Source of the DNA: Tabrizicola sp.
Lineage (GTDB): Bacteria > Pseudomonadota > Alphaproteobacteria > Rhodobacterales > Rhodobacteraceae
Direction of reading: 5' to 3'
Assembly: GCA_016792685.1 (NCBI GenBank)
Contig: JAEULQ010000087.1
Span: 1 to 43,255, forward strand
Length of the DNA stretch: 43,255 bases
Positions 21,759-37,283 of this stretch are shown here, in pieces (position 1 is the stretch's first letter; each line of letters starts with the position of its first letter). The notes beneath the pieces were generated by a model, which was not told where the DNA came from, did not search any database, and saw only the letters and a list, made by a program, of their open reading frames with translations. A program made the translations under genes and the position numbers.

Positions 21759-22559
21759 ATGCATGAACGTGAACGCTGGTCCCTTATCCTTTCGAAGCTG
21801 CGCGAACGCGGGATCGTTCGTGTGAGCGATCTTGCCGCGCTGACTGGGGCATCGGTCGCCACGCTGCGGCGGGATATGGCAAAACTTGAGGATTCCGGGC
21901 TGTTGCGCCGTGTCCACGGCGGGGCAGAGCGTGCGGGGGTGTCGGGGCAGAACGAACTGACGGCCACCTCTTTCGGGACGAGCCAGTCGATCAATGCCCA
22001 GGAAAAGCAGGCCATCGCCGCCCGTGCGGCCGAGCTGTGCGAGGACGGCGATTCGATCATCCTGAACGCGGGATCGACGACTTGGTTCATGGCGCAATGC
22101 CTGCGCGCCAAGCGGATGCAGGTCCTGACCAATTCCTTCCCCATTGCGCAGGAACTGATCGCGAATTCCTCAAACCGCGTCGTGCTGCCTGGGGGAGAGC
22201 TTTACCGCGAGCCGGGGATCATCCTGTCGCCCTTCGATGAGGATGCGATCCAGCATTTCGCGGCGGCCAAGATGTTCATGTCGGCCTATGCCGTCACGCC
22301 TCTTGGCGTGATCGAAAGCGATCCGCTGATCGCGCGGGCCGAGGCAAAGCTGCTGAACCGCACGGAACGGCTGATCGTTCTTGTGGACAGTTCGAAATTC
22401 GAGGCGCGGGGAAACATCGTGGTCTGTCCGCTGACCCGTGTCTCGACCGTCGTCACCGATACCGGCGCGCCGCCACAGATGGTTGATCATCTGCGCGGAG
22501 TGGGGGTCGAGGTGATCTTGACCGATCCGAAGGACGTGAAGGTTCTCACGGCGGCCTGA
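21759..22559 (+). CDS. rhaR: DeoR-family regulator of rhamnose genes
   Basis: The 266 aa protein has an N-terminal HTH (SDLAALTGASVATLRRDMAKLE, about residues 22-45, followed by LLRRVHGGAE) and the DeoR sugar-sensor domain (DGDSIILNAGSTTWFMA; LPGGELYRE; LIVLVDSSKFEARG). In rhizobia the equivalent gene opens the rhaRSTPQUK operon and represses it and rhaDI in the absence of a rhamnose-derived signal. Here it is divergent from rhaD and 42 bp ahead of rhaS. The ATG at 21759 has little ribosome-site support. Confidence 0.92.
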   Translation: MHERERWSLILSKLRERGIVRVSDLAALTGASVATLRRDMAKLEDSGLLRRVHGGAERAGVSGQNELTATSFGTSQSINAQEKQAIAARAAELCEDGDSIILNAGSTTWFMAQCLRAKRMQVLTNSFPIAQELIANSSNRVVLPGGELYREPGIILSPFDEDAIQHFAAAKMFMSAYAVTPLGVIESDPLIARAEAKLLNRTERLIVLVDSSKFEARGNIVVCPLTRVSTVVTDTGAPPQMVDHLRGVGVEVILTDPKDVKVLTAA

Positions 22560-22601
22560 CCGGCGTGGGGAAAGAAACAAAACTCAGGGAGGAGTTCGAT
22601 C

Positions 22602-23648
22602 ATGATGATGAATATGAAGGGGCTGGCGCTGGCCGCCGGTCTGGTTGCAGGGCTGATGGGCAGCACCGCATTGGCCGAACCCGTCACGGCCACGCCGGGG
22701 CAGGAAGTGAACGCGGTCCTGTTGCCGAAGTTTCTCGGCATCCTGCCGTTCGATCAGGCCAATCGCGGCGCTCAGGAAGCTGCGGCCGAGCTCGGGTCGA
22801 CGGGCAAGCTCGAATACATCGGGCCGACGCCTGAGAATTCGGCTGCGGGCCAGATCGAGATGCTGACGACCGCGACCACGCAGAAGCAGCATGTCGTGAT
22901 GCTGTCGAACAACGCCGGCGATCAGATCGCCGCCACGGCCGAGGCCGCGCAGGCCGCAGGCACCAAGGTCGTGACCTGGGATAGTCCGATCCCGAACGGG
23001 GCGGGCGAGAGCTTCTTCGTGGCCCAGGTCGACTTCGGCTCGATCGGTGTGGTGATGGCCGACATGGCCTATGACCTCGCCGGTGGCGCGGGTGAGTTCG
23101 CGGTGCTTTCGGCCAGCCCGGACGCGGCCAACCAGAATGCCTGGATCGACATGATGAAAGAGGCGCTGAAAGGGGACAAGTACAAGGACCTCAAGCTTGT
23201 CGATGTCGTCTATGGCAATGACCAGTCTGAAGAATCCTACAACCGCGCTCTGGGTCTGGTGGACAAGTATCCCGACCTGAAGGTCATCATGGCCCCGACC
23301 ACCGTGGGCATCGTCGCCGCCGCCAAGGCCATGCAGGACGAGGGCCTTTGCGAGAAGGTCAAGGTGTCCGGTCTGGGACTTCCGGCCGAAATGGTCAGCT
23401 ACTCTCTGAACGGCTGCGCGCCGCAGTTCGCGCTGTGGAGCTTTGTCGACCTGGGCTACCTGACCTATCACGCCTCCTATGCGCTGGCGACCGGTGCGAT
23501 CAAGGGCGAGGTGGGCGAAGAGTTCACGGCGGGCCGCATGGGGACCTTCAAGATTGAGGAAGACCCGGGCCGTCCGGGAACCAAGCGCGTCCTGATGGGG
23601 CCGTTCACGGTCTATACCAAGGAAAACGTCGAAGCCGCTGCAAACTGA
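22602..23648 (+). CDS. rhaS: Rhamnose ABC transporter, periplasmic binding protein
   Basis: This 348 aa protein has a signal peptide (about residues 1-25, [15 protein letters not shown] followed by STALAEP) and a ribose-type periplasmic binding fold ([55 protein letters not shown]). It binds rhamnose in the periplasm and delivers it to RhaP/RhaQ. The ribosome site AGGGAGGAG is one of the strongest in the window, fitting the need for excess binding protein. A strong hairpin follows the stop. Confidence 0.93.
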
Positions 23649-23669
23649 GGCTTTGACCGGACGAAAGAT

Positions 23670-23698
23670 GATCGGGGCTGCCCTTCGCGGCCCCGATC
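23670..23698 (+). terminator. Intra-operon hairpin after rhaS
   Basis: GATCGGGGC (23670-23678) pairs perfectly with GCCCCGATC (23690-23698). It lies in the 79-bp gap between rhaS and rhaT without a T-run, so it probably acts as an attenuating or mRNA-protecting hairpin that keeps binding-protein mRNA above that of the membrane components. Confidence 0.55.
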
Positions 23699-23727
23699 CC
23701 CTCCCAGTACGCTGAACGGACCATCCC

Positions 23728-25233
23728 ATGACCTCTGCGGTTCTTGAACTGCGGTCCGTGGCAAAAAGCTTTGCCGCCACCGCCGCCCTGCGCGACATGT
23801 CGCTGGCCATCGAACCGGGCGAGGTCCATGCCATCGTAGGTGAGAATGGGGCAGGCAAATCCACGCTGATCAAGATCATGACCGGTGTCTATCGCCCTGA
23901 CGCGGGCGAGATCCTGGTGGAAGGGCGCGCGGTCACCCTGCGTTCGACCCAGGATGCGCAGGCCGAGGGCATTGCCGCGATCTATCAGGAGCCGATGGTC
24001 TTTCCCGACCTGAACGTGGCCGAGAATATCTTCATCTCGAACCGGGCGAGCGGGGCCTTCCTGAACTGGCGCGCGATGTTCGCCGATGCCGACCGGATCG
24101 TGGCGCAGCTTGGCGTCAGCCTGGACGTGCGGCGCGCGGCCTCGGGGCTTACGCTGGCTGAACAGCAGACAGTGGAAATCGCGCGGGCGCTGTCGCTGAA
24201 GGTGAAGGTCCTGATCATGGACGAGCCCACCGCCAGCCTTTCGGCGCATGAGGTTGAGCGGCTCTTGTCCATCGCCCGGGCGCTGAAGGCGCAGGGAGTG
24301 GCGGTCATCTACATTTCGCACCGTCTGGACGAGATCTTCCGCATCGCGGACCGCGTGACGGTGATCCGCGACGGGCAGCACATCTCGACCCGTCCCATTG
24401 GTGAGGTGACGGAAGAAGGCATGGTGCGCGAGATGGTGGGGCGCGCGATCGACAGTTTCGCGGTCAAGACCGAGGCCAATGCCGTGGGCGACGTGGCGCT
24501 GTCGGTGCAAGGTCTTGGCCGCGCCGGCGTGTTTTCGGGCGTGTCCTTCGATCTGGCGAAAGGTGAGGTGCTGTGCCTTGCGGGGCTTGTCGGCGCGCGG
24601 CGGACGGATGTGGGGCTGGCGCTCTTTGGCATTGCACCCGCGACCGAGGGCCGCCTCTATCTGCATGGGGCCGAAGTGCGGATCACCACGCCGCGCCAGG
24701 CCATGGATCTTGGCATCGCCTATGTCTCTGAGGACCGCCGAAAGCTTGGGCTGGCGATGACGCTGCCGATCTTTGCCAATATCTCGCTGGCATCCCTGCG
24801 CAAACTGCTGGGGGCCTTCGGTCTGATCGACCGCAAGACCGAGGCGGCAATGGCCGAGGATTACCGCCGTCAGCTGGACATCCGCGCACCTGACATGCGG
24901 ATCGAGGTGGGCAAGCTGTCCGGCGGAAATCAGCAGAAGGTGATGCTGGCCAAATGGCTGGAGACGAAGCCCGGGGTGCTGATCTTCGACGAGCCGACGC
25001 GGGGAATTGATGTGGGTGCCAAGGCCGAGGTGCATGGCATCATCCGCCGCCTTGCGTCAGAGGGCGTGGCGATCATCGTCATCTCCTCTGACCTGCCCGA
25101 GGTCATGGCCCTTGCCGACCGGGTGCTCGTCATGCGCGAGGGGCGGCAGGCGGGGCTTCTGGACATATCCGAGGCCAGTCAGGAACGCGTGATTGCCATG
25201 GCCGCCGGTACCGGCGCGACGGAGGCCGCATGA
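23728..25233 (+). CDS. rhaT: Rhamnose ABC transporter ATP-binding protein
   Basis: The 501 aa protein has two fused ABC domains, as in other ribose-type importers. The first has Walker [10 protein letters not shown] (about 40-48), a signature-region [15 protein letters not shown] and Walker [11 protein letters not shown]. The second has the usual degenerate A site ([12 protein letters not shown]), a good signature LSGGNQQKV and Walker [12 protein letters not shown]. It powers rhamnose uptake at the inner face of the membrane. Its stop overlaps the rhaP start as ATGA. Confidence 0.94.
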
Positions 25234-26243
25234 CCGGGCTGTTCGACAGGGTTTCGCCGCAGACGCTGCGGCTGGTTGCATTGTTCCTGGCGCTTCTGGC
25301 GACGGTTCTGTTCTTTTCCACGCAGATCGAGGGCTATCTCTCGGCGCGGATGTTCAACCGGATCTCGACCTCGGCCGCCGTGGTCCTGCCGATTGCTGTC
25401 GGGCAGGCCATCGTCATCATGACGCGCAACATCGACCTTTCGGCCGGGTCCATTCTGGGCGTCGTGGCCTACATGACCGGGCAGGCGCTGGGCGCGATGC
25501 CCGACATGCATCCCGTGCTGGCGGTGGCGCTTGCGATGGGGATCGGGGCCTGTGCGGGGGCGATCAACGGGCTGCTCGTCGCTGTTGGCCAGGTACCGTC
25601 GATCATCGTGACGCTGGGGACCTTGGCGCTCTACCGCTCGTTCCTGGTGGAATACTCCAATGCCACCACGATCACCACGGCCAGCCTTCCGGCCTGGCTG
25701 GTCGATCTGCCGCAAAAGAGCCTGTTCTCGATCGGGGCGCTGGATGTGCGGGTGACGGTGGTTCTGGCGCTGGCGGCCTGTCTGGCCGTGGGGCTGGCCT
25801 TGTCGCGGCTGCGGGCGGCACGGAAATTCCTGGCGGTGGGGTCCAACCCCGATGCCGCGCGCATGGCCGGGATCAATGCGCCGCGCGTGGTGTTTGTGGC
25901 CTTCGTGCTGGCCGGGGCGCTGGCGGGGCTGTCGGGGTTCATCTTCCTGGCAAAGTTCGGAAACATCACCGTGGTTGCCGGGCTGGGGTTCGAGTTGAAG
26001 GCGATCGCTGCTGTGGTGGTGGGGGGCGTGTCCATCATGGGCGGCTCTGGCACGATCCTTGGCGTGCTGATGGGGGCGGTGCTGGTCGACACCATCGACA
26101 ATTCGCTGACCCGCTGGGAGTTGGTCAGCGAGTTCTGGCGCGATGCGCTGCTTGGCATGCTGATCATGGCTGCGGTCACGGTGGATACGCTGGCGGCACG
26201 GCAGCTTGCCCGGCTGCGCGGCAGAGACGGGGGCGGGCAATGA
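25230..26243 (+). CDS. rhaP: Rhamnose ABC transporter permease 1
   Basis: The 337 aa protein consists almost wholly of hydrophobic spans and belongs to the ribose/xylose permease family (BPD_transp_2). The characteristic coupling segment around [15 protein letters not shown] and the [19 protein letters not shown] block are present. It pairs with RhaQ to form the channel. It overlaps rhaT by ATGA at its start and rhaQ by ATGA at its end, so translation is coupled. A long antisense frame over this gene (25179-26240) is a shadow. Confidence 0.92.
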
Positions 26244-27193
26244 TCGGGGCTTTGAAAAGCTGGGAGGGTGGACTTCTGCTGGTGTTTCTGGCCACGCTGG
26301 CCTTGAACGCCGCCTTTGCGCCGGAATTCCTGACGGTGCAGAACCAGATCAACCTGTTCCAGCTGTCGATCGAGAAGATCATCGTGGCACTGGTCATGGC
26401 CCTTGTGATCATGAATGCCGAGATCGACCTGTCGGTCGCGTCGGTCATGGGGCTGTCGGCAGTGGTGTTTGCCTATCTGCTCAATCAGGGATGGGGTGGT
26501 GGCGGGGCCTTGGTGGTCTGTCTGGGTGTCGGGCTGCTGGCGGGTATGGTGAATGCCGTGCTGGTTGCGAAGGTGGGTATCCCGTCGCTGGTCGTCACGT
26601 TGGCGATGATGATCGGCTATCGCGGCTTCTCGCGCGTGATCGTGCAGGATACGAGCCTCGGCAATTTCCCCGAATGGATTACCGATCTGGGCCAACAGGG
26701 GCTGATCGGGCCGCTGCCGCTGTCGATGGTGCTGTTCTTCCTGCTGCTGGTCGGTCTGGGTGTCCTGCTGCACCGCACGGGCTTTGGCCGGCAGGTCGTG
26801 GTGATTGGCACCAATGCCGAGGTGGCGCGGTTCTCGGGGCTGGATGTGTCCCGCGTCAAGGCGACGCTCTTCGTCATGTCCTCGGTGATTTCTGCGATTG
26901 CCGGTGTGCTTTACGCCGCGCGCCTGGGGTCGGTGCGGGGAGACTCGGCGCTGGGGTTCGAGCTGGACATCATCACCATGGTCCTGCTGGGTGGCGTGTC
27001 GATCTTTGGCGGCAAGGGCAGCATGATGGGCGTATTCCTTTCGATCCTGATCATCCTGAACCTTCGCAACGGCATGGCGCTTCTGAACATCACCGGCCAT
27101 GTCCAGACGGGCGTGATCGGGATCCTGCTGATCCTTTCTGTCCTGTTGCCCAATATCGTGACCGAGCTGCGCGCCCGCCGCGCCCGTGCCTGA
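26240..27193 (+). CDS. rhaQ: Rhamnose ABC transporter permease 2
   Basis: The 317 aa product starts at the ATG at 26240, inside the rhaP stop (ATGA). The frame stays open far upstream, but that part is rhaP read out of frame. It has about eight to ten hydrophobic spans, the family motif [18 protein letters not shown], the cytoplasmic loop [17 protein letters not shown] and [14 protein letters not shown]. It forms the rhamnose channel with RhaP. Confidence 0.92.
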
Positions 27194-27203
27194 GGGGAAG
27201 ACC

Positions 27204-27518
27204 ATGCAACGCCACGCCTTCAAGATGTTCCTCAACCCCGGGCAGGAAGCGGAATACGTCCGGCGGCATGACGAGATCTGGCCCGAACTTGTCGAGCTGC
27301 TGAAGGACGTCGGCATCGCCAACTATTCCATCCATCTCGACCGCGAGACCGGGGTGCTGTTCGGCTATCTGGAGCGGCGCGAAGATCACGGGATGGAAGA
27401 GCTGCCGAACCATCCGGTGATGAAGCGATGGTGGGCCCACATGGGCGACATCATGCGCACCAACCCGGACGGATCGCCCGTCGCCATCCCGCTGGTCGAG
27501 ACGTTCTACATGGCCTAG
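27204..27518 (+). CDS. rhaM: L-rhamnose mutarotase
   Basis: The 104 aa protein (also called RhaU) starts at the ATG at 27204 behind GAGGGGAAG. It interconverts the anomers of L-rhamnose. Residues at the positions known from the family are present: Tyr18 and His22 in [11 protein letters not shown], Tyr41 in NYSIHLD, and Trp76-Trp77 in MKRWWAHM. It is the last gene of the rhaRSTPQM operon. Its TAG stop lies on the palindrome CTAG, which also gives the stop of rhaK on the other strand. Confidence 0.95.
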
Positions 27519-28885
27519 CTGCTGGACTGGCGCGCGGCCACACGGGCCTGCCATAGCGCAGCGTAGTCTTTCCAGACCGGCTCGGTTTCCGGTCGGATCC
27601 GTTCTGGAGCGGCACGCGGCGCAGTCAAAGGTCCGGCAAGCAGGGCGGCCCCAAGCCCGGTTCCGGCGCCCTGACCGGCCAGAAGCACATCCCGCCCGGT
27701 GGCCGTGGCCAGCATCCTGGCAAAGGCACGATTGCCGCCCATCGGGCCCTCGACGATGATCTCGCCCTCGGCCCCGATCAGCGACAGGCAGGCGGCCCCC
27801 ATCAGCGCGACATAGAACGAGGCGGCGGCGACGCGCGCGCCGGCATCTTCCGGTTCGGTCGGCGTCCAGCTTGCGACCTGCCCGGGGAAGGGGCCGGTGG
27901 TCGGGTGCAGCGACGGCAGGACCATGACCTGCGAGGCCAGCACCATGCGTTCGGTGGCTTCGGAGGCGGCGGGTGTCTGCCCGCGGGTAAGTTCGTCGAA
28001 CTCGCGTCCTGCCATGAAGCGCGCGGTCGGCACCGGAGCGCCCCGGGCGTTCACATTGATCAGTGTGTCGCGCCGCGCGTCGAGCGTGACGGTCCCTCCG
28101 CCCAGCGACATGACGATCATCCAGGTCCCGGTGGACAGGACGGAACAGGGATCCTTGCGCCCAAGCCAGGGAACCAGCGAGGCGTTGGAATCATGGATGC
28201 CGCACAGGACGGGCGTTGCGGCGGGGAGGCCTGTGGTGCGGGCGATGTCGGGCAGGATCGGGCCAAGCACGGCCCCGGCCGGATGCAGCGGCGGAAAAAG
28301 TGCCGACCAACCCATCCGCTCCACGAGGGACGAGAAGCTGCGACCGAAGGGGTTCCACAAATCGGTGTGACAGCCGAGCGATGTCGCTTCGCTGGCAGCG
28401 ATCCCGGTCAGGCGGAAGGCCCAGTATTGCGGATAGGTCAGGATGTGGCGCGTTTCTGCGAAGGCCGCGGGGAAGCGCTGCGCCTGCCAGAAGAGCTGCG
28501 CACCAAGGTTCAGCCCGCCCGGAAGACGCGGTGCGCCGGTCTCGGAAAAGGGCGGGCGCTGTGCGTCATAGTCGGCAGACAGATCGTCCGGCCCCGGGTG
28601 TTCGTAGTCGAGGACCGGGAGCGCAAGTCTGCCCGCAGCGTCGACCAGTGCGGCCGAGGCCCCGTGCGTCGTGATGGAAATGGCATCCACCTGCTGACTG
28701 CGTCCAAGCTCGCCAAGAGCGGCAAGAAGGAAGGACCAGAGAGCCTCGACGTCAAAGTGCGGGTAGGGGGCCGAGGAGACAACCTCGTTCGGACGGCGGG
28801 CGACGATGCGTTCCATTCCGGTCGAGAGGTCGATGGCCAGCAGCTTTGCGTTGGTCTTTCCGATGTCGATGACGGCGATGTGTCG
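27515..28885 (-). CDS. rhaK: Rhamnulokinase-like FGGY carbohydrate kinase
   Basis: About 456 aa. The frame is open to 28945, but I place the start at the TTG at 28885 ([17 protein letters not shown]), because AGGAG lies about 7 bases upstream and the kinase fold begins there; the upstream TTG at 28945 is part of a TTGACA that may be a -35 box. FGGY features visible are [28 protein letters not shown] and [11 protein letters not shown]. It would phosphorylate L-rhamnulose. In rhizobia rhaK ends the rhaRSTPQUK operon; here it is inverted and meets rhaM tail to tail at the shared CTAG. It lies downstream of the cyclitol operon, separated by a hairpin. Confidence 0.88.
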
Positions 28886-28939
28886 CAAATCGGGGCTCCT
28901 GCCTGATCGGTCGGAACAGTTTCGTTGCGGCGGTGGCCG

Positions 28940-28945
28940 TGTCAA
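28940..28945 (-). promoter_or_regulatory. Possible -35 box for rhaK
   Basis: A perfect TTGACA on the minus strand lies about 55 bp upstream of the proposed TTG start. The -10 region at 17-18 bp spacing (AAACTG) is poor, so the promoter would need an activator or is only apparent. Confidence 0.3.
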
Positions 28946-29083: not shown

Positions 29084-30085
29084 TCAAGTGAGAACGCTGG
29101 CCATCTCGACGGGCTGGCCCGACTTGGCGGATCGGGTCGCGGCCTCTGCCATGGCAAGCGCGGCCACGCCGTCATCCAGGGTCACGGGCACGGGCGTGCC
29201 GGTATGGACGGCCGTCACGAAGGCGGCCCATTCGGCGGCGTAGGCGGGCGTGTAGCGTTCGAGGAAGAAGTAGGTGGGCTTCGCGCCGGTCACGCCTGCG
29301 GTCGTCGATTTGACCACGGTGTTCTCCAGCATGTTCTGCGCCTGGAGAAGGCCGTCCGATCCCAGAAGCTCGACCCGCTGGTCATAGCCATAGACCGCAC
29401 GGCGCGAGTTCTTGATCACCGCGATGCGACCGTCAGCGTAGGTGAGGGTGACAACGGCGGTATCAACGTCTCCGGCGGCGCCGATGGCGGGATCGACGAT
29501 CGAGGTGCCGACGGCGCTGACTGTGACGGGGGCGGCACCCATCAGGAAGTTCGCCATGTCGAAGTCATGGATCATCATGTCGCGGAAGAGGCCACCCGAG
29601 ACCTTGATGTAGGCGACCGGCGGGGGCGCGGGGTCGAAGGACGTGATCGAGAGCAATTCGGCCTTGCCGATCTCGCCCTTGTCGAGCGCGGCCTTGAGGG
29701 CGGCGAAGTTCGGGTCGAAGCGGCGGTTGAAGCCGATCATCACCGGCTTGCCGTTCTTGGCCGCCACCTTCTGGCAGGCCTGCGCGCGGGCGAGCGACAG
29801 GTCCACGGGCTTTTCGCACAGGACGGCCTTCCCGGCCCCCGTGGCGCGTTCGATCAGGTCGGAATGGGTGTCGGTCGAGGTGGCAATGAGGACCGCGTCG
29901 ATGGCGGGGTCGTTCAGGATCGCGTCCGTGGTCCGCGCCTCGGCCCCGTATTGCTGGGCCAGCTTGGCGGCGGCTTCGGTGTTGATGTCGCTGACCGCGA
30001 CGAGGGTCGAGCCGGGGTTCGCGGAAATGGCGGTGGCATGGACGCCGGCGATACGCCCGGCGCCGAGAAGGCCGACTTTCAGCAT
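29084..30085 (-). CDS. iolG: IolG/MocA-like inositol dehydrogenase (Gfo/Idh/MocA family)
   Basis: The 333 aa protein has the N-terminal Rossmann motif LLGAGRIAGVHA, the EKP motif in AVLCEKPVDLS with its conserved lysine, GFNRRFDPNF, and the catalytic HDFDMANF block. These fit NAD-dependent myo-inositol 2-dehydrogenase and its close relatives, which oxidise a ring hydroxyl to a ketone. The exact substrate, inositol isomer, inosamine or another cyclic polyol, cannot be read from sequence. It is last in the operon, 17 bp after the PanB-like gene, and is followed by a strong hairpin. Confidence 0.85.
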   Translation of the reverse strand: MLKVGLLGAGRIAGVHATAISANPGSTLVAVSDINTEAAAKLAQQYGAEARTTDAILNDPAIDAVLIATSTDTHSDLIERATGAGKAVLCEKPVDLSLARAQACQKVAAKNGKPVMIGFNRRFDPNFAALKAALDKGEIGKAELLSITSFDPAPPPVAYIKVSGGLFRDMMIHDFDMANFLMGAAPVTVSAVGTSIVDPAIGAAGDVDTAVVTLTYADGRIAVIKNSRRAVYGYDQRVELLGSDGLLQAQNMLENTVVKSTTAGVTGAKPTYFFLERYTPAYAAEWAAFVTAVHTGTPVPVTLDDGVAALAMAEAATRSAKSGQPVEMASVLT

Positions 30086-30102
30086 GGGTTTGGTCCTTGA
30101 GG

Positions 30103-30912
30103 TTACTGGCCGATGGCGGCCTTGAAAGCTTCGAATTCTTCGTCCTGCATGGCGACGTTGTGCTGCGGCTGCGGATAGCCGCCGGTGTTCACGTCCGCGA
30201 TGAACTCCTTGAACGCGTTGATGCGTTCCTGTTGCAGGCGGGCGTATTCGGCGGCGAAGTTGCGGTAGGTCTTGGCATGGCGCGGCTTGTGGCCGTCGGT
30301 GCAGCCGAGGACGTCTTCGGCGAAGAGGTATTGCGCGTCGGCCCCCGGTCCCGCGCCCATGCCGAGCATGATCATCGGGGTGTTTTTCGAGATGAATTCG
30401 CCCAGGCGGTCGGGGACGACCTCAAGCTCGGCCCCGAAGGCACCGATGGCTTCCAATTGCTTGACATGGTCCCAGACAGCGCGGGCTTCCGTTGCAGTCT
30501 TGCCGACGGCGCGCCAGCCGGTCCAGGTGATGTAGGACGGGATCAGACCGACATGGGCGACGATGGGCATGTGGTTGTCACAAAGCGCCTTCTGGATGTC
30601 CAGCGAGGCGGCGCAATAGAAGCAGTCGCCGCCCATGGCGGTGAAGTGGAAGGCCGCGCGGAGGTAATCCTCGGCCGTCGCAAGCTTGCCGTAGGGTCCG
30701 AAGGGAAGGCCGACTTGCACGAAGCATTTGCCCGCCGCTTCACGCATTTCGGGTGAGAAGAAGCGGCTTTCGATGGACAGTATGTGGATGCCAGCAGCAT
30801 CGGCAGCGGCAGCCTCGTCCAGCGTGGTCACGTAGAGCATGCTGATCTTTTCGCCCCGCGCTTTCATTGCGCGCATGTCGTGGACGGTCGGGCGGCTGGA
30901 TTTGTGGACCAT
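30103..30912 (-). CDS. PanB-like protein lacking metal ligands
   Basis: The 269 aa protein aligns by pattern with ketopantoate hydroxymethyltransferase (PanB): IPIVAHVGLIPSYITWTGWR, AVGKTATEA, LEAIGAFGAELEVVP, GMGAGPGADAQYLFAEDVLG. However, the family VGDSLGM motif reads ILSIESRFF here, with Glu48 near the usual Asp, and the second metal Asp (ADLPF in PanB) is Gly68 in VQVGLPFGPY. The VKLEGG motif is also missing. Pantothenate synthesis is therefore unlikely. A PEP-mutase/PanB-fold enzyme acting in this catabolic operon, perhaps on a 2-keto acid or aldol intermediate, is a better guess. It follows the TIM-barrel gene by 2 bp. Confidence 0.75.
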   Translation of the reverse strand: MVHKSSRPTVHDMRAMKARGEKISMLYVTTLDEAAAADAAGIHILSIESRFFSPEMREAAGKCFVQVGLPFGPYGKLATAEDYLRAAFHFTAMGGDCFYCAASLDIQKALCDNHMPIVAHVGLIPSYITWTGWRAVGKTATEARAVWDHVKQLEAIGAFGAELEVVPDRLGEFISKNTPMIMLGMGAGPGADAQYLFAEDVLGCTDGHKPRHAKTYRNFAAEYARLQQERINAFKEFIADVNTGGYPQPQHNVAMQDEEFEAFKAAIGQ

Positions 30913-30914
30913 GG

Positions 30915-31688
30915 TTACACCGTGAAGGCTGAACGGAAGGCTTCGAGGGCAGCCTCCTCATCGCCCTTGGCGTTGGCCTCCATGCCGACGGGGCCGGAAT
31001 AGCCCATGGCTTTCAGAGCCTTGGCGACGCCGTGGTAGTTGATCTCTCCCGTTCCCGGCTCAAAGCGGCCGGGGTTGTCGGCGACCTGAACCTCGCCGAT
31101 CCAGGGCAGGCAGGCCTGGCACCAGCGGATCAGGTCACCCTCGCCGATTTGCGTATGGTAGAGGTCAAGGTTGATGCGAAGCTGCGGGCGGTTCACGGCG
31201 GAGACGAGGCCTAGGACGGCAGCGGTGGAGCCGAAAGGGCAGCCGGGATGGTCGATGGGGTTGAGGTTTTCGAGGGTGAAGACCTGCCCCTCGCCCTCGG
31301 CCAGATCGCAGATCCGGTGCAGCGTATCGCGGGCGCGTTGTTCCATTCCGGGGGCGAAAGCGCCGATATGGGGGATCGGAATGCCCATGTCGCCAAGGCC
31401 AGTGCCATGCAGGTTCAGCCGGTGGACGCCCAGGCGCTTGCCGACCTTTGCCGTCTCACGCGCCGAGGCCAGCAGCATCTCGCAGCCCTCGGCATCGGTC
31501 AGGCGGCCCTGAAGATAGCCGTTCATGATGGTGAAGGTCGCGCCGGTCTTCTCCAGAGCGGCCAGCTCCCAGTTCGGCCAGTTCCAAAGGCCGACTCCGA
31601 AGCCCATCTCCTTCAGGCGGCTGGCGCGCCAGGCGATGGGGCGGTCGCGCCAGAGCATTTCGGCGCAGGCGGCGAGTTGAAAGGTCAT
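30915..31688 (-). CDS. Hyi/MocC-like sugar-phosphate isomerase (TIM barrel)
   Basis: The 257 aa product starts at the ATG at 31688, overlapping the Rieske gene stop as ATGA. It is an AP-endonuclease-2/xylose-isomerase-type TIM barrel. Likely metal ligands lie in FTLENLNP, INLDLYHTQIGEGD, and the C-terminal VGMEANAKG. The fold and length match hydroxypyruvate isomerase (Hyi) and the inosose-processing proteins (IolE/IolI, MocC). In this setting I favour isomerisation or dehydration of a ketocyclitol after the IolG-like step. This is inference. Confidence 0.8.
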   Translation of the reverse strand: MTFQLAACAEMLWRDRPIAWRASRLKEMGFGVGLWNWPNWELAALEKTGATFTIMNGYLQGRLTDAEGCEMLLASARETAKVGKRLGVHRLNLHGTGLGDMGIPIPHIGAFAPGMEQRARDTLHRICDLAEGEGQVFTLENLNPIDHPGCPFGSTAAVLGLVSAVNRPQLRINLDLYHTQIGEGDLIRWCQACLPWIGEVQVADNPGRFEPGTGEINYHGVAKALKAMGYSGPVGMEANAKGDEEAALEAFRSAFTV

Positions 31689-31996
31689 AGTTCGATCCAG
31701 ACTTGGCCGTCTTCGACTTTGACGGGGAAGGTTTTCAAGTTGATGCAGGCGGGGGCGCGTTTCGCCTCGCCGGTGCGGTAGTCGAAGGTCGCGTTGTGCT
31801 TGGGGCATTCGACGGTGCCGTCCATGACAAGGCCGTCGCAAAGGTGCACCTTCTCGTGGCTGCAGACGCCGTCCATCGCGTGGAAGGTGTCGTCTTCGCT
31901 GCGGATGATGACGAAGGTCTGCGTGCCGTGGTCAAAGCGGATCAGGTCGTCGAGGTCGATGTCGTCGGTCGCGCAGGCGCGGGTCCATCTGGGCAT
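31685..31996 (-). CDS. Rieske-type [2Fe-2S] ferredoxin (MocE-like)
   Basis: The 103 aa protein has a single Rieske domain with CSH (Cys45, His47) and CPKH (Cys64, His67), the full set of cluster ligands. The start at 31996 (MPRWTRACATDD) is 10 bp after the ATPase stop; the longer frame upstream lies in that gene. Stand-alone Rieske ferredoxins pass electrons to oxygenases. Within this operon the only candidate partner is the histidine-box membrane oxygenase at 34970-35986. No ferredoxin reductase gene is present, so a housekeeping reductase would be needed. MocE of the rhizopine pathway is the closest functional analogue that I know. Confidence 0.88.
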   Translation of the reverse strand: MPRWTRACATDDIDLDDLIRFDHGTQTFVIIRSEDDTFHAMDGVCSHEKVHLCDGLVMDGTVECPKHNATFDYRTGEAKRAPACINLKTFPVKVEDGQVWIEL

Positions 31997-32006
31997 GGTC
32001 GGTCTC

Positions 32007-32825
32007 TTACTGGGCAGGTGGGGGCGGGTGGCCGCCGTGGCTGGCCATGTAGCCTTCGATCTCGGCTTCCAGGCTGGCCATGCTGGCACCGCCCGCCATC
32101 AGGTCGGTGATTTCCTCGCGGGTCTTTTCGCCCTTCTTGAAGTCGGCGGCGACCGCGCCCCGGATCAGGACGGCGAAATGGTCGCCTACGGCCATCGCAT
32201 GCATGACCTGATGGGTGATGAAAACGACGGCGAGGCCCCGGCGCTTCGCCTCGTTCACGATGCGCAGGACGTGGGTCGCCTGCTTCACCCCCAAGGCGGC
32301 GGTGGGCTCGTCCAGGATCAGGACGCGCGCGCCGAAATGGACGGCGCGGGCGATGGCGAGGGACTGGCGTTCGCCGCCTGACAACCCACCGACCAGACGG
32401 TCGCCGTCGGTGATGCGGGTGATGCCCATGTCCTGCACGGCCTTGACCGCGATGCTGTTGGCGCGCTTGCGGTCATAGACCTTGAACGGACCCCAACCTT
32501 TTGTGGGTTCCACGCCCACGAAGAACGACCGCCCGATGGACATCAGCGGGAAGGTGCCGCCGAACTGGTGGACGGTAGAGATCCCGGCCTCTTGCGCGGC
32601 GCGGGGGGTGGGCAGGGTGACGGGCTGTCCGTCGAGCTCGATCTGGCCGGACGATGCCTGGTGCACCCCCGACATGATCTTGATCAGCGTCGACTTGCCC
32701 GCGCCGTTGTCACCCAGAAGGCAGAGCACTTCGCCGGGCCGGACTTCCAGCGTGATGTCGTGCAGCACGTCGATCGGGCCGAAGCTCTTGTTCACGCCGC
32801 GGAGGGCAAGGATCGGAGTCGTCAT
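32007..32825 (-). CDS. Sugar ABC transporter ATP-binding protein (single domain)
   Basis: The 272 aa product starts at the ATG at 32825 and overlaps the permease stop (TGATG). It has one ABC domain: Walker A GDNGAGKST, signature LSGGERQSLAIARA, Walker B VLILDEPTAAL and a switch His in FITHQ. This is half the size of RhaT-type fused ATPases and matches the FrcA-like type that works as a homodimer. The C-terminus is a His/Pro-rich tail. It energises the neighbouring permease. Confidence 0.92.
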   Translation of the reverse strand: MTTPILALRGVNKSFGPIDVLHDITLEVRPGEVLCLLGDNGAGKSTLIKIMSGVHQASSGQIELDGQPVTLPTPRAAQEAGISTVHQFGGTFPLMSIGRSFFVGVEPTKGWGPFKVYDRKRANSIAVKAVQDMGITRITDGDRLVGGLSGGERQSLAIARAVHFGARVLILDEPTAALGVKQATHVLRIVNEAKRRGLAVVFITHQVMHAMAVGDHFAVLIRGAVAADFKKGEKTREEITDLMAGGASMASLEAEIEGYMASHGGHPPPPAQ

Positions 32826-33829
32826 CACTTGGCCCCCTTCTTCGGGCTGTAGGACAGCGCCATCTTGCGGAAGGTGTTGTTCATCAGGACAGCGCCGAGA
32901 AGCAGGACGCCGATGATGAGGGACGACCAGTTCCGGTCGAAGTCGGTGTAGTAGATGCCCTGCGTCACGATGGCGAAGGTGATCGTGCCGAAGAAGATGC
33001 CGACCACCGACCCGAAGCCCCCGGTCAGCAGGACGCCCCCAACCACGACCGAGATGATGGCGTTGAAGATGAAGCTTTGCCCGCCCGCCACTTGCGCCGA
33101 GTTGTAGAGGATCGCCTGGCACATGCCGACGAAGGCGGCCGAGGTGGCGGAGAGGACGAAGAGGATCACGGTCAGCCGGTCAGTCGGGATGCCGGCATTG
33201 CGGGCGCTGGTCTTGTCACCACCCATCGCGAAGATCCAGTTCCCGAAGGGCGAGACATGGACGAAGAAGATGTAAAGCGCGGTCAGGGCCAGCCACCAGA
33301 TCACCATGACTTGAAGCTGGCCACCCAGCAGGAAGTCTCCGAACAGCACCTTGGCCGGGCCCTCGACGGTCAGCGCGACCGAGGTGGACTTGGTGATGAG
33401 GACAGTCAGGCCAAGGACGATACCTTGCACGGCAAAGAGGCTGCCAAGGGTCACGATGAGCGAGGGCACGGCGGTCTTGATGACGAGGATTCCGTTCACC
33501 AGCCCGACGATCACGCCGAAGGACAGGGCCACGGCGACACCAAGCCAGATCGACATGCCATAGTGGCCGGTTACGACGGCCACGGTCATCGCCCCGAACG
33601 GAACCATCGCCCCGACCGATATGTCCAGTTCCCCGGCGATCATCAGAAGTCCCAGCGGGATGGCGATGACGCCCAGGTTTGCGGCGACGTTCAGCCAGCT
33701 GGCCATGCCCGCGGGTTTCAGGAACGTGAGCCCGCCGAAGATGGCGAAGAAGATCAGGACGGCGATCAGGCCAAGCGCGGCCCCCGCCTCTGGGCGGCGC
33801 AGAAGCCCGCCGATGGTGATGCTGGACAT
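32825..33829 (-). CDS. Sugar ABC transporter permease
   Basis: The 334 aa inner-membrane protein of the ribose/fructose permease family has the GELDISVGAMVPFGAM motif, the loop GGDKTSARNAGIPTDR and the GGVLLTGGFGSVVG block. It is the only permease in this operon, so it presumably dimerises. It is separated from the binding-protein gene by a 62-bp gap with a hairpin and overlaps the ATPase gene by one base. Confidence 0.92.
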   Translation of the reverse strand: MSSITIGGLLRRPEAGAALGLIAVLIFFAIFGGLTFLKPAGMASWLNVAANLGVIAIPLGLLMIAGELDISVGAMVPFGAMTVAVVTGHYGMSIWLGVAVALSFGVIVGLVNGILVIKTAVPSLIVTLGSLFAVQGIVLGLTVLITKSTSVALTVEGPAKVLFGDFLLGGQLQVMVIWWLALTALYIFFVHVSPFGNWIFAMGGDKTSARNAGIPTDRLTVILFVLSATSAAFVGMCQAILYNSAQVAGGQSFIFNAIISVVVGGVLLTGGFGSVVGIFFGTITFAIVTQGIYYTDFDRNWSSLIIGVLLLGAVLMNNTFRKMALSYSPKKGAK

Positions 33830-33859
33830 GGGTCGTCCCCGGGACTGGAAGGGAAAGGT

Positions 33860-33883
33860 GGGACCGGCGGCAAGGCCGGTCCC
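33860..33883 (-). terminator. Intra-operon hairpin after the binding-protein gene
   Basis: GGGACCGGC (33860-33868) pairs perfectly with GCCGGTCCC (33875-33883). It lies between the binding-protein stop and the permease start without a T-run, in the same relative place as the hairpin after rhaS. Confidence 0.55.
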
Positions 33884-33891
33884 GGAGGGTC

Positions 33892-34863
33892 TTAGCGCGC
33901 GCCGAGGGACACGCCGGCCAGCGTCGCCTCGATGTTCGACGCGTCGACGATGCCCGGGCCGGTCAGGACCGGGAAGACCGGCAGGTCGGTACCGAAGTCG
34001 ATGTGCGCGGCCAAGAGGCTGACGGCCAGGTAGGATTGCAGGTAGGGCTGCTGGTCGATGGCGAAGGCCTGAGTGCCCGCCTTGATCCGGTCGAGACCGG
34101 CCTGGTTCATGTCGAACGAGCCAAGCTTGGTGGCGCCGGTCTTGCCCGCCTGTTCCACCGCAATCGCGGCGCTGTCGGCATCGCCCGCGCTGATGGTGAT
34201 CACACCGTCGATGGTCTCGTCTTTGATCAGTTCGGCCTTGATCGCCTCGGCCACGGCAGTCGCGTCGCCGAACGAGGTCGACGGCAGCGGCAGTTGCGCA
34301 CCCTTGCCGCCCTTGGCGGTGATGCCGTCGATCACGCCCTTGCAGCGCGCCTCGATGTTCGCCGTACCCGGCAGGGTGTTGATGCAGAGGACGTTCTTCT
34401 GCCCGCCATCGCCGAAGTATTCGCCACCGGCAACACCGGCCACATATTCATCGGACCCGACATAGTTGATCGCGCCCAGTTCCTTGGCCTTGTCCGCGCC
34501 GCCCGCGTTCATCAGGATGACCTTGATGCCCGCCGCCATCGCGTCCTTGATCGCCGGGTCTTCGGCTTCCGGAACCCAGTTCGGGATCACCAGGCCGTCG
34601 ACTTCCATCGAAATCGCGGTGCGGATCAGCTGCACCACGTCGGGGGCGAAGTTGTCGTAGTTGACGAGGCGCAGGTAGGTCACTTCGCCGCCGTTGGCCA
34701 CGATCGCCGGGGTGGCGTCATCGATGCCCTTCTTGATGATGTTCCAGAAGGCGTCGTCGTTCGATCCGCCGATCACCGCGATCTTTGCAGCCATCGCGGC
34801 TGATCCGGCCGAAACCAGTGCCGTCGTCGCAAGGACTTTGGCGATAGTCTTCATGAAGCTCAT
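33892..34863 (-). CDS. Sugar ABC transporter periplasmic binding protein
   Basis: The 323 aa protein has a signal peptide (KVLATTALVSAGSAAMAA, about residues 9-26) and the type I periplasmic binding fold (AVIGGSNDDAFWNIIKKG; DGLVIPNWVPE; TISAGDADSAAIA; FAIDQQPYLQSYLAV). It falls in the ribose/inositol group (Peripla_BP_4). A very good ribosome site (AGGGAGGAA) precedes the ATG at 34863. The ligand is unknown; the linked IolG-like and Hyi-like enzymes suggest a cyclitol or its derivative. Confidence 0.92.
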   Translation of the reverse strand: MSFMKTIAKVLATTALVSAGSAAMAAKIAVIGGSNDDAFWNIIKKGIDDATPAIVANGGEVTYLRLVNYDNFAPDVVQLIRTAISMEVDGLVIPNWVPEAEDPAIKDAMAAGIKVILMNAGGADKAKELGAINYVGSDEYVAGVAGGEYFGDGGQKNVLCINTLPGTANIEARCKGVIDGITAKGGKGAQLPLPSTSFGDATAVAEAIKAELIKDETIDGVITISAGDADSAAIAVEQAGKTGATKLGSFDMNQAGLDRIKAGTQAFAIDQQPYLQSYLAVSLLAAHIDFGTDLPVFPVLTGPGIVDASNIEATLAGVSLGAR

Positions 34864-34969
34864 TGGTCTTTTCCTCCCTTGGTCCGCCCCTCTCGGCGGG
34901 TTGTTGATGCCTTCTGGTCGTCACCACCTGGCCAGCCTCCTCGACCGGCCGGTGGAATGCGCGTGGGGG

Positions 34970-35986
34970 TCAGGGGCGGGCCGCTTTCGCGTTCATCCGC
35001 TCTTTCTTCTTCTGGAAGCGGGCGTTCATCCGCGCCTCGCCTTCCTTGGAGCCGTCGTGCCAGTAGCCGAACCACTTATCCAAGGGGATCAGCCCGTCGC
35101 CGCCGTAGTTCACCTCGAAGTACTTGTGGTGCAGGTAATGGGCGTAGGCGTGGCTTTTCAGCGGGGTGTTTTCGGTCAGCTCCAGCTTGTCGAACCCGAT
35201 ATGCCCATTCACCGCCCCAAAGCCCGCAAGGTGCAGCTGGAACATGGCCAGCAGCGGGTTCGACGGGATGATCAGGTGCCAGAAAGCGACCGCGTGATAC
35301 AGGAACCCCTCAACCGGATGCATCGAGAGCGACGACCAGGGGCTGGGGTTGACCGAGTTGTGGTGCACCGAATGCACCCACTTGTAGAGAAGGGGCGTGT
35401 GGATCAGCCGGTGGATCGCGAAGAAGTGGACTTCGTGGATCGCGGGGCTGAGGAGCGCAAGCGCGACCAACCAGGGCCAGTGCGTCGTCCAGGGCAGCCA
35501 GGTTGCCCAGCTATTTGCGAAGGCCCAGAGGAACAGCACCTCGACGAGCGTCCAGAGCGGGATCGAAATGAAGAAGGACCGCAGAAAGTTGTCGAGGTTC
35601 TGGCTCTTGAACCAGAAGACGTCCGAGGGCTGCTCGGCCGGGAACTTGCCGTTGTACTTGAAGCGGGTGCCCTGCTTCTTCTTGACATACCAGAAAAGCT
35701 CGACCGAGCCGTAGAACACGAAGATCGCCGCCGCATTCACGGCGTAAAGCCACAGCGCCCAACCCCAAGACAGGGTTTTCATCGTCTCGACATCCGGCAC
35801 GACGTAGAACCACCAGATCAAAGCGGTCGCCATGTGGAAGGCATTCCAGGGCCAGAGATATTCCGGAATCCAGCCAAGAACCTTGCTCAGCCTGAACGGA
35901 CGGCGCCAGAAGGGCGGCAGCTCCAGAGCGGCATTCGGCGCCCAGTCGCCGCGCTTGTTCCGGGTGCCAAACTGCAGATCGTCCAT
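34970..35986 (-). CDS. Membrane fatty-acid-hydroxylase/sterol-desaturase superfamily oxygenase
   Basis: The 338 aa protein has several hydrophobic spans and three histidine clusters: HFFAIHRLIH (His187, 192, 196), HSVHH (205, 208, 209) and HYLHH (283, 286, 287). These are the di-iron ligands of the superfamily, so it should be an O2-dependent hydroxylase or desaturase at the inner membrane. It lies 106 bp upstream of the binding-protein gene on the same strand and divergent from the LacI regulator. With the Rieske ferredoxin it could form an oxygenase system analogous in logic to MocD/MocE. An action on membrane lipid is the main alternative. The gap leaves it open whether it shares the operon promoter. 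Confidence 0.85.
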   Translation of the reverse strand: MDDLQFGTRNKRGDWAPNAALELPPFWRRPFRLSKVLGWIPEYLWPWNAFHMATALIWWFYVVPDVETMKTLSWGWALWLYAVNAAAIFVFYGSVELFWYVKKKQGTRFKYNGKFPAEQPSDVFWFKSQNLDNFLRSFFISIPLWTLVEVLFLWAFANSWATWLPWTTHWPWLVALALLSPAIHEVHFFAIHRLIHTPLLYKWVHSVHHNSVNPSPWSSLSMHPVEGFLYHAVAFWHLIIPSNPLLAMFQLHLAGFGAVNGHIGFDKLELTENTPLKSHAYAHYLHHKYFEVNYGGDGLIPLDKWFGYWHDGSKEGEARMNARFQKKKERMNAKAARP

Positions 35987-36214: not shown

Positions 36215-36242
36215 CGTATCATCGAGCTTCTTTGGTGATACG
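36215..36242. promoter_or_regulatory. Inverted repeat upstream of the LacI regulator
   Basis: CGTATCA (36215-36221) and TGATACG (36236-36242) are perfectly complementary with a 14-base spacer, ending 18 bp before the regulator ATG. A second short dyad, GAAAC-N8-GTTTC, lies nearby at about 36194-36211. Either could be the operator for autoregulation and for control of the oxygenase operon. Confidence 0.4.
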
Positions 36243-36260
36243 AAAGATATCAGGAACACC

Positions 36261-37283
36261 ATGCGCCGTCCGACGATTCCAGACCTCGCCGAAGCAGCCG
36301 GTGTCTCGGTTGCAACCGTGAACCGGGTGCTCTCTGGTGCGGCCAACGTACGATTGGCCACGCGGGAGAGGGTCAAGCAAGCGGCTGAGGATATTGGCTT
36401 TTATGGTGTGGGCAGTATCCAGGCGCGGGTCGCCGCCGCGCGTCCGCGGCTGCGTTTTGGCGTCTTGCTGTTGCAGCCACATCGGCCCTTCTACCAGAAT
36501 GTCGCCCGCGCTCTGGAAGAGGCAGCCTCTTCGACCACCGAAGCCGATGTCGACCTGCGGATCGAGTTCCTTGAAGATCTGTCGCCACAGAACATTGCGG
36601 CCCGCGCGCTGGATCTGGCGACCAGCTGCAACGCGATTTGCCTGACTGCTGCCGTGCATCCGATCGTGACCGAAGCGTTGGAGCAGATCCAGACCAGGGG
36701 CATTCCGGTCTTTGCGCTGATCTCGCAGATCTCGGTCACGGGCCAGATGTCCTATATCGGGCTCGACAACTGGAAGGTTGGGCGCACGTCTGCATGGGCC
36801 TTCGCGAACATCTGCAAGGCGCCGGGAAAGATCGGCATCCTGATGGGCAATCCGCGCTACCGGAACCAGGAGATGAACGAGACAGGTTTCCGGTCGTTCT
36901 TCCGCGAATTTGCGCCAGAGTTCGTTCTGCTGGAACCGGCGTCAACCTTCGAATCTGCGGCGGTCGCGCAGGACCTGACCGAGAAGCTTTTGGCCGATCA
37001 TCCGGACCTTGTCGGGCTTTACATCTCGGGAGGCGGCATCAGTGGCGCGCTTGCTGCTTTGCGGTCTGGTGCGAGGCCAGGTTCGCTGGTTGTTGTCGGG
37101 TACGACCTCACCGATGTGACCCGCGCGGCTCTGCTGGACGGGACAATGACGCTGGTGATTTCGCATCCCCTTGGGCGTCTGGCCCGCGATGCCATTGACG
37201 GCATGATCCGCGCCTGCGCCCATCCCGGAACCAATCAGACGAGCATTGCGCCGTTCGAGCTTTACACGCGCGAGAATATTTGA
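36261..37283 (+). CDS. LacI-family transcriptional regulator
   Basis: The 340 aa protein has the N-terminal LacI HTH (IPDLAEAAGVSVATVNRVLS, residues 5-25) with the hinge helix region and a periplasmic-binding-like sensor domain (FGVLLLQPHRPFYQNVARAL; YIGLDNWKVGRTSAWAF; GLYISGGGISGALAA; VGYDLTDVTRAALLDGTM). It is divergent from the oxygenase gene with 274 bp between them, so it very likely controls the 29.1-36.0 kb operon in response to its sugar or cyclitol. Confidence 0.92.
   Translation: MRRPTIPDLAEAAGVSVATVNRVLSGAANVRLATRERVKQAAEDIGFYGVGSIQARVAAARPRLRFGVLLLQPHRPFYQNVARALEEAASSTTEADVDLRIEFLEDLSPQNIAARALDLATSCNAICLTAAVHPIVTEALEQIQTRGIPVFALISQISVTGQMSYIGLDNWKVGRTSAWAFANICKAPGKIGILMGNPRYRNQEMNETGFRSFFREFAPEFVLLEPASTFESAAVAQDLTEKLLADHPDLVGLYISGGGISGALAALRSGARPGSLVVVGYDLTDVTRAALLDGTMTLVISHPLGRLARDAIDGMIRACAHPGTNQTSIAPFELYTRENI

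What the first reader, a model, noticed from the sequence alone, without database searches (positions are those of the whole stretch)
29084..35986. Cyclitol-type ABC operon joined to a Rieske ferredoxin and a di-iron membrane oxygenase
Seen: on one strand, histidine-box oxygenase, binding protein, permease, ATPase, Rieske ferredoxin, Hyi/MocC-like barrel, PanB-like protein and IolG-like dehydrogenase, mostly overlapping, with a divergent LacI regulator. Known, from memory: rhizopine catabolism in rhizobia joins a MocA/B/C set with a ferredoxin-dependent oxygenase (MocD/E/F) that removes an O-methyl group before inositol degradation. Inferred: this operon imports a modified cyclitol or sugar and removes a substituent oxidatively before dehydrogenation. 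The reductase component is missing and the PanB-like member is not part of the moc set, so it may be an undescribed variant.
Basis: partly seen in the sequence, partly recalled or inferred. Interest (0 to 1): 0.75.

Follow-up and report, generated by a model that had tools for sequence, protein, structure and literature searches.

The report
Methyl-inositol operon with formaldehyde-capture candidate
This is a conserved bacterial gene set that most likely imports a methylated plant inositol, clips off the methyl group with oxygen, and may hand the toxic formaldehyde to folate through a re-purposed vitamin-pathway enzyme, a step for which the papers seen name no enzyme.

Summary
In detail: eight same-strand genes plus a divergent LacI regulator. 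Of 66 loci with enough flank, all found by the PanB-like query, 60 also carry the oxygenase, ABC and ferredoxin genes. The ferredoxin passes the MocE model and the dehydrogenase the IolG model. The binding protein's best solved match is an inositol binder. The oxygenase is an FA_hydroxylase-type di-iron enzyme; the mocD-type neighbour in S. meliloti is FA_desaturase-type. So this is moc-like chemistry, not the rhizopine system.

The new part is the PanB-like protein. The genome has a separate true PanB. The PanB-like set kept PanB's fold, His136 and Glu181 but lost four metal/keto-acid residues (0 of 23). In 32 same-genus genomes 42 of 47 PanB-like genes lie within 4 kb of a MocE ferredoxin, and the clade occurs with both oxygenase families. 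Seventeen of 80 loci also hold a ferredoxin reductase, PurU or FolD.

Best reading: oxidative O-demethylation of an O-methyl-inositol, with the PanB-like protein passing the C1 unit to tetrahydrofolate. The C1 transfer is inferred and untested. Twelve of 25 class-wide PanB-likes showed no oxygenase nearby.

The parts
34970..35986 (-). membrane di-iron oxygenase (FA_hydroxylase / sterol desaturase superfamily), putative O-demethylase; histidine boxes HxxxH (192-196), HxxHH (205-209), HxxHH (283-287)
   Evidence: Pfam PF04116 61.3 bits, cut-off 31; these eight histidines kept in 74 of 74 aligned oxygenases
33892..34863 (-). periplasmic binding protein of a sugar/cyclitol ABC importer
   Evidence: Peripla_BP_4; best NCBIfam is rhizopine SBP, 158.7 bits, below its cut-off of 420; model best match 4ru1, TM 0.80/0.90
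32825..33829 (-). ABC importer permease
   Evidence: BPD_transp_2
32007..32828 (-). ABC importer ATPase, single domain
   Evidence: ABC_tran, one stretch; matches only the first half of the double ATPases
31685..31996 (-). MocE-family Rieske [2Fe-2S] ferredoxin
   Evidence: TIGR02377 154.6 bits, cut-off 136.15; CxH and CxxH ligands in 73 of 73; start chosen at the ATG at 31996
30915..31688 (-). xylose-isomerase-like TIM barrel, putative inosose isomerase/epimerase
   Evidence: AP_endonuc_2; nearest curated family hydroxypyruvate isomerase, below cut-off; the role is inferred
30103..30912 (-). PanB-like protein lacking the PanB metal/keto-acid residues; candidate C1-to-tetrahydrofolate enzyme
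   Evidence: Pantoate_transf; 106.9 bits against a cut-off of 272 and 79.4 against 207.55; residues; model matches PanB; function inferred
29084..30085 (-). inositol 2-dehydrogenase (IolG)
   Evidence: TIGR04380 430.7 bits, cut-off 355; PDB 4hkt E 6.6e-99
36261..37283 (+). divergent LacI-family regulator
   Evidence: LacI and Peripla_BP_4; 66 of 80 loci have a LacI match of at least 35%
36215..36243 (.). candidate operator: CGTATCA - 14 bp - TGATACGA in the LacI/oxygenase gap
   Evidence: 8-mer TCGTATCA (either strand) in 32 of 53 such gaps, 0.3 expected from letter shuffles; related sequences, so not independent; place counted by hand from the sequence printed

Best explanation
The operon catabolises an O-methylated inositol (pinitol- or ononitol-like). 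A CUT2-type ABC importer brings it in. The membrane di-iron oxygenase, fed electrons by the MocE ferredoxin and a ferredoxin reductase encoded elsewhere in the genome, hydroxylates the O-methyl group; the product loses its one-carbon unit as formaldehyde. The PanB-like protein, which has lost the keto-acid half of PanB's active site but kept the fold, His120 and Glu164, loads that C1 unit onto tetrahydrofolate as methylene-THF. FolD, and in some relatives PurU, then oxidise it to formate. The freed inositol is oxidised by IolG, adjusted by the TIM barrel if needed, and enters the inositol pathway. LacI senses the substrate or a product. Shown: gene content, families, conservation, loss of the PanB residues. 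Inferred: importer ligand, demethylation, C1 transfer, regulation.
For: Inositol: IolG above cut-off; binding-protein model closest to 4ru1, described as a myo-inositol transporter (PMC10747050, passage); relatives next to iolC/iolD or iolE/iolD; two IolD over cut-off in this genome. Oxygenase electron chain: MocE above cut-off; ferredoxin reductase in 13 of 80 loci. C1: PurU in 11, FolD in 6, any of reductase/PurU/FolD in 17 of 80 loci. On L031 PurU and FolD pass NCBIfam cut-offs, while the reductase matches dioxygenase ferredoxin reductases below theirs. Plasmid L088 reads binding protein-permease-ATPase-MocE-TIM-reductase-PanB-like-FolD-PurU-IolG (Pfam domains). PanB-like tied to the ferredoxin: 42 of 47 PanB-like places lie within 4 kb and on the strand of a MocE gene, median gap 18 bp, in 32 same-genus genomes. 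The clade occurs with both oxygenase families and twice beside a MocE gene in this genome. True PanB is separate. D45, D84, K112, E114: 22 of 22 true PanB, 0 of 23 PanB-like; H136 and E181 kept in all. Need for such an enzyme: spontaneous HCHO + THF was judged too slow for growth, and PanB was considered as a possible promiscuous catalyst (PMC7073904, passages).
Against: No ligand or activity was tested. In 385 class-wide genomes, of 25 PanB-like places 11 have an oxygenase or MocE in the stretch, 12 do not, and two were not judged (by BLAST to a few labelled proteins, some stretches cut by contig ends, so misses are possible). FolD/PurU are found with only a minority of relatives and not in this operon; the best PurU search hit in this genome, 88.9% complete, is a partial 53-bit match. 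PMC7073904 found that deleting E. coli panB together with ltaE did not change formaldehyde-dependent growth, so true PanB is no precedent for the activity. Losing the metal site could equally mean quite different chemistry.
Confidence: 0.5

Rival explanations
1. Oxidative demethylation as above, but formaldehyde condenses with THF or glutathione unaided, and the PanB-like protein does another job: for example it takes the hydroxymethyl ether (R-O-CH2OH) or acts as a hydrolase/lyase on the oxygenase product.
For: The PanB-like gene follows the oxygenase/ferredoxin module, not the inositol genes; the metal/keto-acid residues are lost. A review describes formaldehyde-THF condensation as spontaneous (PMC8879981, passages).
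Against: FolD and PurU join the same operon in some relatives, pointing to THF; the nearest fold is PanB, a methylene-THF enzyme (its cofactor recalled); the spontaneous rate was judged too slow (PMC7073904).
Confidence: 0.25
2. The operon is a rhizopine (3-O-methyl-scyllo-inosamine or scyllo-inosamine) catabolic locus, a direct relative of mocABC/mocDEF.
For: MocE-family ferredoxin, Gfo/Idh dehydrogenase, TIM barrel, and rhizopine SBP as nearest curated binding-protein family.
Against: Binding protein far below the rhizopine cut-off (158.7 of 420); LacI in place of a MocR regulator; oxygenase of another Pfam family than the mocD-type gene.
Confidence: 0.07
3. The oxygenase removes or oxidises something other than an O-methyl group (for example a ring or side-chain hydroxylation of a sugar), and the PanB-like protein is a C-C lyase acting on a later intermediate.
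For: After PanB the model's next Foldseek matches are class II aldolases and methylisocitrate lyases; some variants carry a second Gfo/Idh, a second TIM barrel or a ribokinase.
Against: Would not explain FolD/PurU, nor why the PanB-like gene keeps to the ferredoxin across different oxygenase families and neighbours.
Confidence: 0.13
4. A lipid-modifying oxygenase that merely neighbours a sugar operon.
For: FA_hydroxylase family name.
Against: The gene set is kept in 60 of 66 loci across Rhodobacterales and rhizobia; electron donor in the same operon.
Confidence: 0.03

Closest known systems
Rhizopine catabolism, mocABC + mocDEF (S. meliloti L5-30, R. leguminosarum)
   Same: MocE-family ferredoxin, Gfo/Idh dehydrogenase, TIM barrel, and a proposed ferredoxin-oxygenase step feeding inositol degradation (title of Bahar 1998 seen only in a reference list; MocA/MocC families recalled)
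   Different: FA_hydroxylase- not FA_desaturase-type oxygenase; LacI regulator; PanB-like gene in the operon; no reductase in this operon; binding protein below the rhizopine cut-off
S. meliloti pSymB LacI-mocD-mocE-mocF cluster (SM_b20817-20820 named so in PMC11387232, passage)
   Same: MocE ferredoxin, divergent LacI, and a PanB-like gene next to them in a pSymB of strain ml28 (54.9% identical; matched to SM_b20817-20820 by content and order, locus tags not compared)
   Different: desaturase-type oxygenase, reductase present, no inositol importer set in the stretch shown
PanB, ketopantoate hydroxymethyltransferase
   Same: fold (3vav, E 5.9e-19), His136 and Glu181
   Different: below PanB cut-offs; D45, D84, K112, E114 lost; separate clade; true PanB elsewhere in the genome
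Fae, formaldehyde-activating enzyme for H4MPT, and Gfa for glutathione
   Same: proposed role: speeding formaldehyde capture by a carrier (PMC7073904 and PMC8879981, passages)
   Different: other carrier (THF); PanB fold by model; homology to Fae or Gfa not tested here; no activity shown
Inositol catabolism (iol)
   Same: IolG equivalog, iolC/D/E beside some relatives
   Different: adds a proposed methyl-removing front end

Membership tests
MocE-family ferredoxin (TIGR02377) | score over curated cut-off | tested here: met
   154.6 against 136.15 bits
MocE-family ferredoxin (TIGR02377) | Rieske ligands CxH and CxxH | tested here: met
   73 of 73 aligned copies
Inositol 2-dehydrogenase (TIGR04380) | score over curated cut-off | tested here: met
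   430.7 against 355 bits
Rhizopine moc system | rhizopine binding protein (NF052284) | tested here: not met
   158.7 against 420 bits
Rhizopine moc system | MocD-type (FA_desaturase) oxygenase | tested here: not met
   window PF04116 only; mocD-type gene PF00487; MocD of L5-30 itself was not available
Rhizopine moc system | MocF reductase in the set | tested here: not met
   absent in window; reductase in 13 of 80 relatives
Rhizopine moc system | MocR-type regulator | tested here: not met
   the adjacent regulator is LacI-family; that MocR is GntR-related is recalled
Rhizopine moc system | growth on scyllo-inosamine or its 3-O-methyl form | not testable with these tools
   needs a culture
PanB | score over PanB cut-offs | tested here: not met
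   79.4 of 207.55 and 106.9 of 272 bits
PanB | metal and keto-acid residues D45, D84, K112, E114 | tested here: not met
   0 of 23; roles and E. coli numbering recalled; D84, K112, E114 and E181 counted on the 1m3u alignment printed, D45 placed by its GDS motif in true PanB
PanB | PanB fold | tested here: met
   AlphaFold2 model, pLDDT 87.2; Foldseek ranks 1-28 all PanB entries
FA_hydroxylase membrane di-iron enzymes | Pfam score and histidine boxes | tested here: met
THF-linked formaldehyde-capturing enzyme (hypothesis) | THF binding and catalysis | not testable with these tools
   needs purified protein

The most novel reading that the evidence does not exclude
The PanB-like clade is a dedicated enzyme family that transfers formaldehyde, or the hydroxymethyl group made by membrane di-iron oxygenases, to tetrahydrofolate: a folate counterpart of Fae, recruited from PanB by dropping its keto-acid site, and shared as a module with MocE ferredoxins by two different oxygenase families.
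Probability: 0.4. Interest if true: 0.85.

Novelty: new variant of a known kind. Interest (0 to 1): 0.62.

Why it matters
O-methyl-inositols such as pinitol are abundant plant solutes (recalled; PMC5889025's abstract start, says methylated cyclitols are a major part of the carbohydrates in many plants). None of the papers listed by my searches reports, by title or abstract start, bacterial genes that demethylate them. Three of these lists were cut (20 of 108, 25 of 100, 20 of 34), and most subscription journals are missing from that library, so this is no proof of absence.

More broadly, the passages seen describe formaldehyde plus THF as spontaneous (PMC8879981) and too slow to support growth, and raise the possibility of a formaldehyde-activating enzyme that accepts THF (PMC7073904). 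A gene family tied to oxygenases expected to release formaldehyde, and built on the PanB fold, makes that question directly testable, and would be useful for synthetic one-carbon assimilation.

Tried and rejected
Considered and rejected: PanB-like as the genome's pantothenate enzyme (true PanB elsewhere; residues lost). Lipid hydroxylase beside a sugar operon (set conserved). Direct rhizopine locus. The FGGY kinase as a ninth gene: it lies 138 bp downstream on the same strand, but no match to it was printed for any of the 80 loci (E up to 1e-10, overlapping weaker hits hidden).

Weak or led nowhere: PDB sequence search with the oxygenase found nothing useful. Palindrome scan of the LacI gap gave no shared palindrome in the eight loci looked for; only short repeated words stood out. 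First PanB alignment script failed on a wrong motif. A first Fisher figure used a mistyped overlap of 8 genomes; the right overlap is 7, redone. Paper searches that showed nothing on this operon in their listings. Bahar 1998 was not held.

Against the reading: 12 of 25 class-wide PanB-like places have no oxygenase or MocE in the stretch fetched; seven of them form their own clade. Two were not judged (G070 at a contig end, G313 not fetched). Five of 47 same-genus PanB-like places have no MocE within 4 kb, and six of 48 MocE places have no PanB-like gene within 4 kb. Loci in the tree were partly chosen by oxygenase or desaturase searches, so its label mix is not a census; searches are counts of all hits at their E-value limits. 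That tree is of the quick kind and warns of long branches that may be wrongly joined.

Names by eye or by BLAST to a labelled set rather than by profile: most neighbours.
Full report
What is there. The window, from a 3.58-Mb, 88.9% complete genome, holds eight minus-strand genes at 29084-35986: membrane oxygenase, binding protein, permease, ATPase, MocE-type Rieske ferredoxin, TIM barrel, PanB-like protein and IolG, with a LacI gene facing away at 36261-37283. Two of seven junctions overlap by 4 bp; the others are 2 to 106 bp apart. The ferredoxin and the dehydrogenase pass their curated NCBIfam cut-offs; the binding protein and the PanB-like protein do not pass the nearest ones.

Conservation. 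A scan of the species genome collection with the PanB-like protein gave 91 relatives, of which the best 80 were kept, mostly Rhodobacterales, Rhizobium, Shinella, Ensifer, Labrys and Mesorhizobium. Of the 66 with enough flank, 60 have oxygenase, binding protein, permease, ATPase and ferredoxin; 54 also the TIM barrel; 37 also IolG at 35% or more. Three of the 66 lack an oxygenase match: L066, L073 and L080. L073 has an FA_desaturase gene directly upstream of its PanB-like gene, and L080 has a desaturase match. Within the genus, 16 of 32 genomes have a match to the oxygenase at E up to 1e-60, which includes paralogues down to 42% identity.

Substrate class. IolG is an equivalog match, closest in PDB to an inositol 2-dehydrogenase (4hkt). 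The binding protein's model is closest to 4ru1 (36% identity), which PMC10747050 calls a verified myo-inositol transporter (passage). A 67%-identical binding protein in R. leguminosarum heads a cluster with iolC and iolD and no oxygenase in the 17 kb shown. In Marivivens a desaturase-type cluster with MocE and PanB-like genes runs on into iolG, iolC and iolD, and in R. leguminosarum Vaf-108 the window-type oxygenase lies with a desaturase near iolE and iolD. This genome has two IolD over cut-off. A methylated inositol is therefore the likeliest import; which isomer is not known.

Oxygenase chain. The oxygenase is FA_hydroxylase-type with its eight box histidines kept in 74 of 74. In S. meliloti 1021 genes named mocD, mocE and mocF (SM_b20818-20820) are listed with a LacI gene in PMC11387232 (passage). 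The pSymB stretch of strain ml28 that matches by content and order shows LacI, an FA_desaturase-type oxygenase, MocE ferredoxin, FAD oxidoreductase and then a PanB-like gene. The window lacks the reductase; the genome's best candidate is unlinked, at 41% identity. A reductase lies in 13 of 80 relatives.

The PanB-like protein. This genome has a true PanB (332.8 bits, cut-off 207.55) and two PanB-like genes, each next to a MocE ferredoxin; the second pair goes with an FA_desaturase. On a tree of 61 rows PanB-like proteins are one clade apart from true PanB, and labels for FA_hydroxylase, FA_desaturase or no oxygenase nearby need at least four changes within it (quick method, long branches flagged; rows not a census). 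All 22 true PanB keep D45, D84, K112 and E114; none of 23 PanB-like rows do. In a wider set of 21, two rows have D at the first and one at the second place. H136 and E181 are kept in all 22, all 23 and all 21 (residue roles recalled). The model has the PanB fold.

Linkage statistics. In 32 same-genus genomes, 42 of 47 PanB-like places have a MocE gene within 4 kb on the same strand (median gap 18 bp), and 42 of 48 MocE places have a PanB-like gene; 12 of the 42 pairs also have the FA_hydroxylase oxygenase within 8 kb. The oxygenase family beside the other 30 pairs was not determined, except for the C40 pair of this genome. MocE and PanB-like genes each occur in 24 of the 32 genomes, both in 22. 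In 385 genomes of the class, MocE (E up to 1e-30) occurs in 14, PanB-like (E up to 1e-40) in 21, both in 7 (one-sided Fisher p 1.3e-6; relatedness not corrected). Of 25 PanB-like places there, six have MocE within 4 kb, and 11 have MocE or a membrane oxygenase in the stretch; 12 do not, and two were not judged. MocE itself often has a desaturase- or hydroxylase-type gene beside it where no PanB-like gene is found.

One-carbon link. PurU, FolD or a ferredoxin reductase lie in the stretch held for 17 of 80 loci (PurU 11, FolD 6, reductase 13): in 13 of these downstream of the PanB-like gene on its strand, in four (L066, L072, L075, L078) upstream on the other strand; L066 has no oxygenase match. 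On L031, PurU and FolD pass NCBIfam cut-offs, and the reductase is nearest to dioxygenase ferredoxin reductases, below their cut-offs. On a Neotabrizicola plasmid the genes read binding protein, permease, ATPase, MocE, TIM barrel, reductase, PanB-like, FolD, PurU, IolG (Pfam), with the oxygenase at the other end of the circular record. No convincing PurU was found in this genome.

Mechanism. Import, hydroxylation of the O-methyl group, collapse to inositol plus a one-carbon unit, transfer of that unit to THF by the PanB-like protein, then oxidation by FolD (and PurU where present), with IolG taking the inositol. Passages of two papers bear on the transfer step: PMC7073904 finds the spontaneous reaction too slow, names PanB as a possible promiscuous catalyst, and saw no change on deleting panB and ltaE in E. 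coli; PMC8879981 describes the reaction as spontaneous. I infer that a PanB relative that lost its keto-acid site is a good candidate catalyst. This is an inference from linkage and residues, not shown.

Comparison and verdict. It works like the moc oxidative demethylation but fails four tested rhizopine features (binding protein, oxygenase family, reductase in the set, regulator type), so it is not filed as a moc locus. It is a new variant of a known kind whose most interesting member may prove a new enzyme family.

Noticed in passing
G000:C40:68787-72209 (locus L102:6788-10210): A second MocE + PanB-like pair in the same genome, with an FA_desaturase and a divergent LacI, followed by a TIM barrel, binding protein and permease (the last three named by eye).
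   Followed up: partly
L020:10001-16364 and L030:1-4289: The window-type operon (its 3' end in L030) and a desaturase-like/MocE/PanB-like cluster lie next to each other, on opposite strands.
   Followed up: no
L120, L121, L122: In three 1.4-Mb genomes (unnamed) a PanB-like gene sits beside a desaturase-type gene (36-38% by BLAST) with no MocE match nearby; which substrate these serve is unclear.
   Followed up: no
L127-L130, L134, L135, L139: A separate PanB-like clade (seven rows) with no oxygenase found near; L127, the one displayed, has Met in place of Tyr99. Role unknown.
   Followed up: no
window 14142-28945: An L-rhamnose-type catabolic cluster abuts the operon (names by eye, kinase by Pfam), including a uroporphyrinogen-decarboxylase-like ORF (by eye) at 16184-17299 that is unexpected there.
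   Followed up: no
window 1-10000: G+C is 0.52-0.58 in the 2-kb windows up to 10 kb against about 0.60-0.68 further on, which may mark acquired DNA.
   Followed up: no
G000:C111:10977-11960 (L003): A 43%-identical oxygenase paralogue; no MocE match lies on that contig.
   Followed up: partly
L173:6909-11773, L174:6789-12607: Mesorhizobium and Bradyrhizobium plasmids join a ribokinase to PanB-like, oxygenase, Rieske ferredoxin and reductase, perhaps a different substrate for the same module.
   Followed up: no
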